Assembly (NCBI GenBank): GCA_029862005.1
Contig: JAOTYD010000004.1
Span: forward strand, 1 to 64,000
Origin: Gammaproteobacteria bacterium
Lineage (GTDB): Bacteria; Pseudomonadota; Gammaproteobacteria; GCA-001735895
Reading direction: 5' to 3'
Length of the DNA: 64,000 nt
Positions 20,492 to 43,159 of this stretch are shown here, piece after piece. Under the pieces are notes generated by a model, which ran no database searches, was not told the origin of the DNA, and was given only the letters and a program-made list of their open reading frames with translations. The position numbers and the translations under genes are program-made. The stretch's first letter is position 1; the number at the start of each line of letters is the position of its first letter.

Positions 20492-21475
20492 CTAGTCTGT
20501 CGAACCTGCGGGTATTTCCGGATAGATCTTCGAATGGGCCATTCCAGGGTGACGATCGCCGTATCGTGCCGGTACATCCTGGGTCCAGTCGCTTGGAATT
20601 ATGGTCGGCAGTATTAACAGTACGACGAACATCAGCTTTTTTATCAAAAGCCCACTCATGGATTCAGCACCCGGCGCCCGCCGATCGACATGAGGTGCGT
20701 TCGCTTGTGACGGCTCTTTTTCCCGGCGGTAACACCAGACTAACAGTCCGATTCCTATTATGGTCATCAGGATATTGAATTCCTGTCCCGGCGGAAGACC
20801 GTACAAACTGGAGCGATACTCGCGAAAGAAATCGATAAAAATACGCAGAAAGCCATACCATAAAATAAAGTGACCGACCAATACCCCGCGCGGAGGATTC
20901 GTTTTTTTGATGAGCAGCAACAAGGGCACCAGCAGCAGGTTTTTTAGCCCGTCATAGAGTACCACCGGATGTCGAAAGCCGTTTAGATCGGGAAACTTGA
21001 CTCCCCATGGCATGTCGGTGAGGCTGCCTACGATTTGTCCATCGATGAAGTTTCCGATGCGACCAAACGCCATGATGAATGCCGCCGCAATCGCCAGCAC
21101 ATCGGCAACCTCGAGAAAATTTCGACGATGCAGTTTGCAGAATAAAATCACGGCGATGGTTGCGCCGAGCAGGATACCGTGGGTCGACATCCCGCCCAGC
21201 CAGATTGCGGGTATGTGCGCAAGATGCGAACCGTAATAAGCCCATTCGTAAAAAATGACTTCGACCGCACGGCCGCCAAGCAGCACGCCGAAGGCAATAT
21301 ATATGATCAGCCTGAAGACATCATCCATGTCAAACGCGAGGACTGTTCGATTGGCGCGCAGCCAGATAAAACCGACCAGGAATCCAAGACTGTAACTGGC
21401 GCCGTACCACCAGAGGTAAAATCCTCCAACCTCGGCAAATATCGGGTCGATATCGTGAATGAAGGGACCTGACAT
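20492..21475 (-). CDS. Divergent Lgt-like (prolipoprotein diacylglyceryl transferase family) membrane protein
   Basis: A 327-residue integral membrane protein with the Lgt helix pattern. It keeps the GGMSTHG histidine (like H103 of E. coli Lgt), the arginine and asparagine of GRIGNFIDGQIVG, and the arginine of YGFLRIFIDFF. But the glutamate of the canonical signature NGE is Gln here, and the later glutamate is Asp. A C-terminal tail of about 55 residues adds another hydrophobic segment and a charged end. The canonical lgt is present at 40192-41034, so this is a second, altered paralog. Its substrate is unknown. Confidence 0.75.
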   Translation of the reverse strand: MSGPFIHDIDPIFAEVGGFYLWWYGASYSLGFLVGFIWLRANRTVLAFDMDDVFRLIIYIAFGVLLGGRAVEVIFYEWAYYGSHLAHIPAIWLGGMSTHGILLGATIAVILFCKLHRRNFLEVADVLAIAAAFIMAFGRIGNFIDGQIVGSLTDMPWGVKFPDLNGFRHPVVLYDGLKNLLLVPLLLLIKKTNPPRGVLVGHFILWYGFLRIFIDFFREYRSSLYGLPPGQEFNILMTIIGIGLLVWCYRREKEPSQANAPHVDRRAPGAESMSGLLIKKLMFVVLLILPTIIPSDWTQDVPARYGDRHPGMAHSKIYPEIPAGSTD

Positions 21476-21594
21476 TGATTCAACCTGTACCCTATTTTGC
21501 TTAACTTTAAGCCGGTTTCAGCCTGTTTAGTTGATTTGCGTCGGATTTTTAGCATGTGATAATAGGTTTCGGCTTCATTCAACGCGTGGAATTT

Positions 21595-39413: not shown

Positions 39414-40208
39414 TTATACCGCGACAGCTGCTTTTATATGCTCGTGGCACTGGTAGTTCTCAAGTTCGAAATCCTCGAAACGAAACGCAAACAGGTCCTT
39501 CACTTCTGGGTTCAGCTTCATCCGGGGCAAAGCGAAGGGCTTGCGCTGAAGCTGCAAGCCTGCCTGTGCGAAGTGGTTGGTATAAAGGTGCGCATCGCCG
39601 AGCGTATGCACAAAATCTCCCACTTCCAGATCGGTTACCTGAGCTACCATCATTAACAATAGCGCATAGGACGCAATATTGAACGGTACCCCCAGAAAAA
39701 CATCGGCGCTGCGCTGGTAGAGCTGGCAGGAGAGGCGCCCGTCGGCAACATAAAACTGGAAAAAGGCATGGCAGGGCGGCAACGCCATATTCTCGATTTC
39801 CCCCACGTTCCAGGCACTGACAATCAGACGGCGCGAGTCCGGACTCGTTTTAATATTGTCGACCAGCTGTTGAATCTGATCGATTGCACGACCATCCGCA
39901 GACCTCCAGGAACGCCATTGCGCGCCGTAAACCGGGCCCAGGTCGCCATTTTCATCGGCCCATTCGTCCCAGATCCGAACCTTGTTCTGCGCGAGATAGC
40001 GAATATTCGTATCACCCTGCAAAAACCATAATAATTCATGGATGATCGAGTGCAGGTGAAGCTTCTTGGTGGTAATCAGCGGGAATCCCTGGCCCAGGTC
40101 GAAGCGCATCTGGTAACCAAATACCGAGCGGGTACCGGTGCCGGTGCGATCCGTTTTATCGCTACCGTTTTCGAGCACGTGCTGCATCAGTTCAAGATAT
40201 TGACGCAT
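39414..40208 (-). CDS. thyA: Thymidylate synthase
   Basis: A 264-residue enzyme, the same length as E. coli ThyA. The active-site Cys lies in [12 protein letters not shown]; the substrate Arg is in [11 protein letters not shown] and [13 protein letters not shown]. It methylates dUMP with methylene-tetrahydrofolate and yields dihydrofolate, the substrate of folA nearby. The ATG at 40208 overlaps the lgt end by 17 bases, as in the lgt-thyA pair of E. coli. Confidence 0.97.
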
Positions 40209-41034
40209 GGTTGCCTTGCCTTTTTGCGAGTGTCAGCAGAATTAAGCCAACTATAATCATTGGAATCGATAATACAATGCCCCTGGTGAGCCAGTCGGTA
40301 TTAAACAGGTAACCGATGTGAGCATCCGGCAAGCGAATGAATTCAACGCTGGTGCGAGCAAGGCCATATAACAAAAGGAAATAACCTGAAATCACCATCA
40401 CCGGGCGCGGTCTTATCGACAATAGCCACAGTGCCGCAAACAACAGGATTCCTTCGAGCAACATCTCATAAAGCTGCGTGGGATGGCGCGCACTGAAACA
40501 TAAGGGTCCTGCGAAATCGACATAGCGGTCGGGCGGAAATTGCTCGCAGGACAGTTTCATCGCCCAGGGTACATTGCCGGGTGCACCCCAGAGTTCGGCA
40601 TTGATAAAATTTCCAAACCGGCCGGCTGCGAGTCCCAGCGGCACCAGCGGTGCAATAAAGTCGGTTAACTCCCAGAACCGGCATCCCAACTTACGTCGGT
40701 ATATCTCCATCGCAACCAGCACGCCGAGAAACCCCCCATGAAAAGACATGCCGCCTTCCCAGATCTTGAATAGATACAGCGGGTTTTGTATGAAACTGTC
40801 GAAGTTGTAGAAAATTACCGAACCTATGCGCCCGCCCAACACTGCTCCCAGCGCGCCATAGAATATCAGGTCATCGATTTGGTCAGGCTTGACCAACGAA
40901 TTATCCTGGCGGGCTCGATACTTGCCGAGCCACCAGGCGCTGCCAAATGCGAGCAGGTACATGAGCCCGTACCAGTGAATCTTGACGGGGCCCAGGGAAA
41001 TCGCGACGGGATCGATCGACGGAAAAGCAATCAT
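40192..41034 (-). CDS. lgt: Prolipoprotein diacylglyceryl transferase (canonical)
   Basis: A 280-residue membrane enzyme with seven helices. It carries all key residues: [21 protein letters not shown] with Arg, Asn and Glu, HPTQLYE and [12 protein letters not shown]. It transfers diacylglyceryl from phosphatidylglycerol to the lipobox Cys of prolipoproteins. I set ATG 41034; the frame extends to 41118 but [12 protein letters not shown] is the normal beginning. Compare the divergent paralog at 20492-21475. Confidence 0.95.
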
Positions 41035-41116
41035 TGCGGAAATTTCTGATTCAAACTCATGAGTATGCCTGATCAGGGTGTTATTATCGCACGGAAACAA
41101 TACGGATGGCACAAAC

Positions 41117-43159
41117 ATGTCGAATGCCCTCGCTGGCGAATCAAGTCCCTACTTGCGCCAACATGCAGATAATCCGGTGAATTGGTTGCCCTGGTCGCAG
41201 CAGGCCCTGGACCTGGCCCGCGAACAGAATAAACCCATACTGCTGTCGATCGGTTACTCGGCCTGTCACTGGTGTCATGTCATGGCGCACGAATCGTTCG
41301 AAGACGAGGCCACGGCAGCGCTGATGAACCAGCATTTCATCAACATCAAGATAGATCGGGAGGAGCGACCGGATATCGACCGAATCTATCAGACCGCGCA
41401 TCATTTAATCGCACAGCGCCCCGGCGGCTGGCCACTAACCATGTTTTTATCACCGCAGGATTGCGTGCCATTCTTCGGTGGCACCTATTTCCCGAGCCAA
41501 CCGAAATACGGCATGATTGCGTTTAGCGATTTACTTGAGCGCATAGCAGCTATATATCAGCAGGAGCCCGACAAGATCAGGCAACAGGGTGAAGCGATCC
41601 AGCAGGCCCTGATTGATATCGAAATGCGTGAAAACCAGAACCTGCACGACGCAAAGATCAGCGCGCTGGATACTTTCGATACCCAGCTGATCAAGGTCCA
41701 TGATCCCCAGTTTGGCGGTTTTGGTCAGGCACCGAAATTTCCCCAGCCCGCCATTTTGCTGCAGGCACTGGGTCGGGCGTTTCAAAAATCATCTGCTGAT
41801 CCTGTCTACGGCGCAATCGACTTCAGCCTGCAGCAAATCGCGCGCGGTGGAATCCGGGATCACGTCGGGGGTGGCTTCTTTCGTTACTCGGTAGATGATA
41901 AATGGATGATCCCGCATTTCGAAAAGATGCTGTATGACAACGGTCAGCTATTGGAGGTATTTGCGAAAGCCTGGCGATTAACCGGGGATCACCTGTTTGC
42001 AGATGCCGTCGACGGCATCGTGAACTGGCTTGAGCGCGAAATGGTTACCGACTCGGGCGCATTTTATGCTGCTCTGGACGCTGATTCCGAAGGCGTCGAA
42101 GGCAAATTCTACCTGTGGACGCCCGAACAGGCACAGCAGTTAATAGACAGCCAATTCTACCCGGTATTCGCTCATCAGTACGGGCTCGACCAGGCCGCAA
42201 ATTTCGAAGGCAAATGGCATCTGCACGCCTACTTCGGCGAACCGGAGTTGCTCGACGAGTTCAGACTCGAAGCAAAGGAATTCCGATCCCAACAGGAGCG
42301 GGCACGACAGCTCTTGCTCGCGCAACGCGCAACCCGCATCCGCCCCGGACTCGATGACAAGATATTGACCGGTTGGAACGCATTGGTGATACGCGGGCTC
42401 GCTAGCGCAGCTCGGATTTTCATGCGCCAGGACTATTTCGACATCGCGCAGCGCTGCCTGCAGGCGCTGAAGAATGATTGCTGGCGGGAAGACCGCTTAC
42501 TTGCGCTCAGCATAACCGCCGGTAAACAATTACCCGCCTATCTTGATGATTACGCCCATCTGCTACAGGCGATCCTTGACTGCCTGCAGTACCAGTGGAA
42601 CGACGAAGATCTGGCTTTCGCGGTTAAGCTTGCCGATCAACTGCTCGATCGATTCGCCGATCCTGACCACGGGGGCTTTTTCTTTACCGCAGCCGATCAT
42701 GAAAAACTCATCCAGCGTCCCAAGTCCTGGCAGGACGAGGCGATGCCCAGTGGTAACGCTGTCGCCGCACTTGCCCTGCATCGACTGGGCCTGCTAATCG
42801 GGCGACAGGCCTATACCCAAAGCGCGGAAAGAGCATTGCAATCAGTGGCTGACAATGTGAACCAGACGCCTTTCCACGCTGCCGGTTTTATCGCGTTACT
42901 CGAGGCGCTTAACAGTCCACCCTTCCAGATTATCCTGCGCGGTGAGCCCACGCCGTTGGCACAGTGGCGTGACGAGATATTACCGCGATTGAAACCCGAT
43001 CAATCCGCATATTTCATTCCGAACGATGCGCAGGATTTACCCGCGGAGATCACACAAAAAACCAGCGACCGTGCGGTTAGTGCTTGGATTTGTGAAGGCT
43101 TTGTTTGTCGTCAACCCCTGCATGAGCTTGACACATTGCTGCATTCACTAGACAAATAA
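41117..43159 (+). CDS. Thioredoxin-domain protein of the YyaL/DUF255 family
   Basis: A 680-residue cytosolic protein. The first 150 residues form a thioredoxin-like DUF255 domain: [15 protein letters not shown] at the start, [20 protein letters not shown] with the Cys-x-x-Cys pair, and GGTYFPSQ. The rest is an alpha/alpha toroid of the six-hairpin glycosidase type ([25 protein letters not shown]). It is divergent from lgt. ATG 41117 is chosen because the family begins MSNAL...ESSPYL. Members are called spermatogenesis-associated protein 20 in animals; the bacterial role is unclear. Its end overlaps dgkA's end by 12 bases. Confidence 0.88.

What the first reader, a model, noticed from the sequence alone, without database searches (positions are those of the whole stretch)
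20492..21475. Second Lgt-like enzyme with the key Glu replaced by Gln
The Lgt fold residues are kept (His in GGMSTHG, Arg and Asn in GRIGNFID) but the signature NGE becomes DGQ and a conserved Glu becomes Asp. The normal lgt is elsewhere at 40192, so lipoprotein modification is covered. A paralog with altered chemistry might transfer another lipid or act on another acceptor. It sits next to a BT1-type carrier and a cupin gene.
Basis: partly seen in the sequence, partly recalled or inferred. Interest (0 to 1): 0.5.

Follow-up and report, generated by a model that had tools for sequence, protein, structure and literature searches.

The report
Second lipid-attaching enzyme with rebuilt face
This bacterium has, besides the usual enzyme that attaches lipids to proteins, a rare and distinct cousin that keeps the catalytic core but has a changed lipid-selecting site and an extra conserved tail, so it may attach lipid to something else, though this is not yet shown.

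Summary
Window 20492-21475 (-) encodes a second Lgt-fold protein ("Lgt2", my name); the normal lgt is at 40192-41118. Glu151 of E. coli Lgt is Gln here, Glu243 and Glu202 are Asp, Asn149 is Asp. This is a family trait: Lgt2 is one clade (SH-aLRT 100 on the core alone) seen in records titled Gammaproteobacteria, Desulfobacterota, Acidobacteria, Verrucomicrobia and others. Gln is in 76 of 76 rows (66 distinct genes) and in 0 of 75 other Lgts. 46 of 50 host genomes have two or more Lgt-family matches. It is rare and patchy, without conserved neighbours; the BT1 carrier and "cupin" look incidental. Tyr26, His103, Arg143, Asn146, Gly154, Tyr235, Arg239 and Arg246 are kept, while arms, head and N-terminus are more conserved than in other Lgts. 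Best reading: an active diacylglyceryl transferase specialised for one partner, perhaps not a lipoprotein. Activity, topology and substrate are inferred. Published data on Glu151 conflict, so Glu-to-Gln alone proves no new chemistry. New variant of a known kind.

The parts
20492..21475 (-). Lgt2: Lgt-fold membrane protein, 327 aa, Lgt core plus an eighth predicted helix and tail
   Evidence: Z 22.1 to E. coli Lgt 5azb, rmsd 2.9, 249 residues
21179..21181 (-). His99 (E. coli H103) in GGMSTHGI; F102 equivalent is Thr98
21026..21061 (-). signature R139-G150, RIGNFIDGQIVG (R143..G154 of E. coli), N149->D145, E151->Q147
20822..20845 (-). R211-IFI-D215-FF-R218 (R239, E243->D, R246)
20600..20659 (-). 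predicted eighth helix (residues 273-292), without counterpart in the other Lgts aligned
20519..20599 (-). conserved C-terminal tail (residues 293-319)
40192..41118 (-). normal lgt of the same genome ([13 protein letters not shown])

Best explanation
Lgt2 is a distinct paralogue of lipoprotein diacylglyceryl transferase that has probably spread between lineages. It probably still breaks the C3-O bond of a glycerophospholipid in the membrane cavity with the kept residues (R139, R211, H99, Y24, N142, Y207, R218) and passes the diacylglyceryl group on. The donor-selecting site (E151->Q, N149->D), the pocket beside the catalytic His (F102->Thr/Ser), loop L6-7 (fixed at 12 residues) and the outer face have been rebuilt, and an eighth helix would bring a conserved tail to the periplasmic side as a lid or specificity part. 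So it would serve one defined acceptor (or an unusual donor) instead of the general pool of prolipoproteins, which the normal Lgt handles. Shown here: the clade, its invariant changes, the extra helix and tail in sequence, the second Lgt-family match in 46 of 50 host genomes, and tighter constraint on arms, head and N-terminus. Inferred: activity, periplasmic side of the tail, its closeness to the active site, horizontal spread, and the substrate.
For: Single clade, SH-aLRT 100, on the core without helix 8 or tail (65 of 140 rows) and with them. Score gap: in 119 Acidobacteriota genomes the three complete copies score 474-505 bits (a fourth is split) and every other listed match at most 141; in 369 Gammaproteobacteria the three complete copies score 501-530, a cut one 317, others at most 190. 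Q147 in 76/76 rows (10 are the same gene met twice; 66 distinct); the 75 other Lgts have E 37, C 36, G 1, D 1. D215 in 74/74 against E in 75/75. Tail: T298, R308, H309, Y318, P319 in 64/64, D300, Y305, S315 in 63/64. The six residues that Legood 2026 calls absolutely required, and Y235 and R246, are invariant. At core identity 35-45% (means 42% Lgt2, 39% and 38% others) the arms are 55% alike in Lgt2 against 34% and 29% in the Asn146 and Cys146 classes, head 77% against 57% and 58%, N-terminus 62% against 41% and 35% (pairs not independent). 46 of 50 host genomes have two or more PF01790 matches.
Against: No activity or substrate is shown. Three positions that Mao 2016 found intolerant (F102 to A/W, E151 to A/Q, E243 to A/Q/R) are changed here, which could also mean loss of activity. 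Yet E151A and E243A support growth in Legood 2026, and other Lgts carry Cys at 151, so these changes need not alter function. Loop L6-7 is less, not more, conserved in Lgt2 than in other Lgts (46% against 60%). No conserved neighbour or operon points to a new acceptor. Four of 50 host genomes showed only one PF01790 match, possibly incomplete assemblies. The tail's side rests on helix count and a positive linker (net charge above 0 in 47 of 64). Model coordinates could not be read, so closeness of tail and active site is not tested.
Confidence: 0.5

Rival explanations
1. Lgt2 is an ordinary lipoprotein-modifying isoenzyme that acts on a subset of prolipoproteins or under special conditions; the changes tune specificity.
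For: The residues Legood 2026 calls absolutely required for Lgt are kept; genomes with two lgt copies are common (about 1,300 in that paper); TIGR00544 hit above cut-off.
Against: Family-wide change of F102 and E151, which Mao 2016 found intolerant to A/W and A/Q; outer face unusually constrained, whereas Legood 2026 describes arms and head as poorly conserved in Lgt; a tail this invariant across phyla is hard to tie to varied lipoboxes (inference).
Confidence: 0.3
2. Lgt2 hydrolyses the phospholipid (a membrane phospholipase C-like activity giving diacylglycerol), with tail residues such as His309, Asp300 or Arg308 helping water attack.
For: Mao 2016 hypothesises slow hydrolysis of PG to DAG in Lgt crystals; polar tail residues are invariant or nearly so.
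Against: No direct evidence; tail position relative to the active site not known.
Confidence: 0.1
3. Non-catalytic relative acting as a partner or regulator of normal Lgt.
For: E151Q is inactive in E. coli by Mao 2016; 46 of 50 host genomes have another PF01790 match.
Against: R139, H99, N142, Y24, R211, Y207, R218 are invariant in the 74-76 rows that cover them; of 30 co-resident Lgts fetched, 13 are of the Asn146 and 17 of the Cys146 class, which does not suit one specific partner.
Confidence: 0.1

Closest known systems
Lgt, phosphatidylglycerol:prolipoprotein diacylglyceryl transferase (PF01790, TIGR00544; E. coli 5azb/5azc)
   Same: Fold (Z 22.1), and the H103, R143, N146, G154, Y26, Y235, R239, R246 equivalents
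   Different: E151->Q, N149->D, E202->D, E243->D, F102->T/S, short L6-7 loop, eighth helix and conserved tail; found in addition to another Lgt-family match in 46 of 50 genomes
Cys146/Cys151 class of Lgt (Acidobacteriota and others; substitutions N146C and E151C/D noted in Legood 2026)
   Same: E151 also lost; R143, R239 and E243 kept
   Different: Outside the Lgt2 clade and without helix 8 or tail; it is the co-resident Lgt in 17 of 30 hosts whose other Lgt was fetched, so it may be the housekeeping one there (inference)
Lgt subgroup lacking R143 and R239 (Legood 2026; main text only seen, not Fig. S8)
   Same: Also proposed there to use another substrate or mechanism
   Different: Lgt2 keeps both Arg
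Second Lgt copies of Streptomyces, Mycobacterium smegmatis, Bacillus cereus group plasmids, Leptonema
   Same: Paralogue beside another Lgt
   Different: Passages read do not mention this motif set or tail; the best plasmid matches to Lgt2 are 32% identical. Not aligned here

Membership tests
PF01790 LGT fold family | Profile match above curated cut-off | tested here: met
   171.6 bits against 24.9, whole profile
PF01790 LGT fold family | Lgt fold | tested here: met
   AF2 model pLDDT 84.4, pTM 0.85; Z 22.1 to 5azb, next row 6.3
Lgt enzyme proper | TIGR00544 equivalog cut-off | tested here: met
   155.8 against 118.9 bits
Lgt enzyme proper | Signature G142RLGNFINGELWG154 with Asn149 and Glu151 (as printed in Mao 2016; PROSITE pattern itself recalled, not run) | tested here: not met
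   GRIGNFIDGQIVG; D145 and Q147 in 76 of 76 rows; but 36 of 75 other Lgts also lack Glu there (Cys)
Lgt enzyme proper | Residues called absolutely required: Y26, H103, R143, N146, G154, R239 (Legood 2026) | tested here: met
   present in every row that covers them
Lgt enzyme proper | Seven helices, chain ending after TM7 | tested here: not met
   extra predicted helix 273-292 and tail
Lgt enzyme proper | Transfers diacylglyceryl from PG to lipobox Cys | not testable with these tools
   needs assay or complementation

The most novel reading that the evidence does not exclude
Lgt2 transfers diacylglycerol from a membrane phospholipid to a non-lipoprotein acceptor (a small molecule, sugar or a single dedicated protein), making an undescribed lipid or anchor; its tail forms the acceptor site.
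Probability: 0.25. Interest if true: 0.78.

Novelty: new variant of a known kind. Interest (0 to 1): 0.47.

Why it matters
Lgt is generally treated as having one job, and as an antibiotic target. A clade that keeps its catalytic core yet has a fixed, different donor site and an added conserved tail, found beside another Lgt-family match in 46 of 50 genomes searched and scattered over phyla, suggests the fold has been recruited for a second reaction or a special substrate. It also gives a natural Glu151->Gln and Glu243->Asp enzyme, useful for settling the conflict over what these residues do. Since the window protein passes the Pfam and NCBIfam cut-offs for Lgt, such genes would likely be named lgt (inference).

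Tried and rejected
Link to the BT1 carrier and 'cupin': rejected. Ten same-genus genomes without Lgt2 have the BT1 gene (G001, G005, G006, G008, G010, G011, G013, G014, G015, G017; two of these matches are partial). In G003 and G004 Lgt2 is on another contig than BT1 (G004's copy is cut by a contig end). In G014 the cupin-BT1 interval holds a 170-aa ORF that looks GNAT-like by eye (no family search run), and in G005 other ORFs.

Stand-alone tail protein: apart from Lgt2 tails, the two best of many weak matches to the tail profile in 49 genomes had E 8e-5 and 0.012; both lie antisense over an ORF that reads like a cytochrome c (by eye), with a stop inside, so I take them as chance. The tail has no Pfam match.

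Conserved neighbours: genes in the 65 loci were called by a home-made heuristic that is weak in GC-rich DNA (in L078, L081 and L087 it missed Lgt2 itself). Apart from the BT1 site, the most frequent immediate neighbours were a 136-150 aa membrane protein in 4 loci and a chalcone-isomerase-like protein in 3 or 4. Not enough to infer a pathway.

Viral contigs: no relative. Plasmids and phages: all matches under 60% identity, the rows shown 29-35%, i.e. other Lgts.

Caution on bias: the scan used WLGGMSTH and GNFIDGQI as patterns, so it favours DGQ. Members found by other means (by protein, by profile) also carry DGQ where the site is covered; only L160 is known to lack both patterns, so the unbiased control is small. 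In the tree my label regex also caught 13 other Lgts with DGQ elsewhere, giving 9 label changes; one search repeats it with a proper label and gives 1. Prevalence samples include the centre genome, chosen because it carries Lgt2, and score only the best few candidates of each genome. The comparison of 30 genomes mixes Asn146 and Cys146 classes on the other-Lgt side, which lowers that side's identity.

Rows dropped: copies L128 and L130 were left out, and 4 of its 79 low-scoring rows are pieces of Lgt2 (L095, L014, two of L131), leaving 75 true others; short rows (under 220 or 215 aa) and identical rows were dropped; I gave 50 of the 65 loci (left out: 11 of the window's genus, and L053, L091, L096, L097).

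No paper describing this clade was found in five library searches (one search listed 20 of 139). Supplements were not available, so Fig. S8 and Table S2 of Legood 2026 could hold members. Seen: Mao 2016 PMC4728403, passages; Legood 2026 PMC13251419, abstract, sections 5, 11, 13, 14 and passages; PMC4758666, two passages. Other papers: search listings only.

Full report
What is there. The 327-aa ORF at 20492-21475 (-) is a full-length Lgt homologue (Pfam LGT 171.6 bits; TIGR00544 155.8 bits), one of two PF01790 matches in the assembly. The other, at 40192-41118, is a normal Lgt (252.7 bits). The AlphaFold model (pLDDT 84.4, pTM 0.85) matches E. coli Lgt 5azb with Z 22.1 over 249 residues; the next entry has 6.3.

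The changes are a family trait. Same-genus orthologues occur in 12 of 31 genomes, own included (G004 cut by a contig end, G020 split over two contigs). A scan of named genomes gave 65 loci, 45-88% identical, with record titles from many phyla; some may be misbinned contigs. Among 76 rows of this type (66 distinct genes), Q147 (E151), D145 (N149) and D175 (E202) are in all 76 and D215 (E243) in 74 of the 74 that reach it; among 75 other Lgts position 151 is E 37, C 36, G 1, D 1, position 149 is never D, and position 243 is always E. Because the scan used the peptides WLGGMSTH and GNFIDGQI, I looked at members found otherwise: L159 and L160 have DGQ, and L160 (GNFVDGQ, GGMATH) lacks both peptides.

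An extra helix and tail. After the Lgt core come a variable linker, a hydrophobic stretch (mean hydropathy 1.7) and a tail. In 64 sequences that reach the end, T298, R308, H309, Y318 and P319 are invariant and P294, S295, D300, Y305 and S315 are in 63 of 64; Cys occurs in the tail of one. The other Lgts aligned have nothing alike there, and the tail has no Pfam match. If the normal topology holds (cytoplasmic C-terminus after TM7, recalled), helix 8 puts the tail in the periplasm, the active-site side; this is inference.

A separate clade. With core columns only, Lgt2 (65 rows of 140) is one side of a branch with SH-aLRT 100 and length 1.11. The sample covers gammaproteobacterial, acidobacterial and co-resident Lgts, not Firmicutes or Actinobacteria. 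Profile scores are bimodal. Frequency in even samples, centre genome included: 4 of 119 Acidobacteriota (one split), 4 of 369 Gammaproteobacteria (one cut), 3 of 240 in the phylum of a Verrucomicrobia record, 1 of 247 in the phylum of a Desulfobulbaceae record. So it is rare and patchy. In 435 pairs of 30 genomes that carry both, Lgt2 is more alike than the other Lgt in 424 (median 57% against 30%). With the interleaved phyla in the tree this suggests transfer between lineages, but strong constraint, mixed classes among the other Lgts and misbinning could contribute. Within the window's genus Lgt2 adjoins BT1 in the window, G002, G007, G009, G016, G018, G020, G023 and G028 (L035), but not in G003 or G025 (L042, L039).

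Not a replacement. 46 of 50 Lgt2-bearing genomes searched have two or more PF01790 matches; four have one. Of 30 co-resident Lgts fetched, 13 are of the Asn146 and 17 of the Cys146 class.

How it may work. [quoted passage not shown] R143 and R239 form the second, catalytic site; E151A/Q, F102A/W, E243A/Q/R and H103 changes were inactive. Legood 2026 (sections read): Y26, H103, R143, N146, G154 and R239 are absolutely required, but E151A and E243A support growth in a dlgt dlpp strain. Lgt2 keeps those six and Y235 and R246, but changes E151, E243 and F102 (to Thr/Ser), and has loop L6-7 at 12 residues in 73 of 74 rows against 13-24 in 75 others. At matched core identity its arms, head and N-terminus are more conserved than in other Lgts, though L6-7 is less so. 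I read this as an active transferase with one fixed partner. An isoenzyme for a subset of lipoproteins remains a serious rival, and loss of activity is not excluded.

Neighbours. Apart from the BT1 site of its genus, no gene family was found immediately beside Lgt2 in more than 4 loci, with a rough gene caller. BT1 and the 'cupin' gene look like chance companions.

Verdict. It is a new variant of a known kind, of moderate interest until a substrate is found.

Noticed in passing
many of L108-L157 (Acidobacteriota and others): A large class of Lgts has Cys at both 146 and 151 of the signature (37 rows with C146, 36 of them with C151), mostly with Tyr for His103; the paired Cys suggest a disulfide. 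The single substitutions are noted in Legood 2026; the pairing is seen.
   Followed up: partly
21476-21555: The divergent gap between Lgt2 and BT1 holds a conserved element (around GCATGTGATAATAG and TTGATTTGCGTCGG) in the same-genus loci aligned; three genus loci with BT1 but no Lgt2 have no close match. It may be a promoter towards BT1.
   Followed up: partly
L039 8994-9401; L042 8924-9373; L053 3813-4220; L054 directly before Lgt2: A 136-150 aa membrane protein lies directly beside Lgt2 in four gammaproteobacterial loci; the L039 copy has no Pfam match.
   Followed up: no
L088 3490-4179; relatives by clustering in L084 and L086, by eye in L090: A chalcone-isomerase-like protein (PF16035, tested for L088 only) follows Lgt2 in several loci of one Lgt2 subclade.
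   Followed up: no
L046 and L053: One assembly (JAHEGU01) carries two different Lgt2 genes plus a normal lgt.
   Followed up: no
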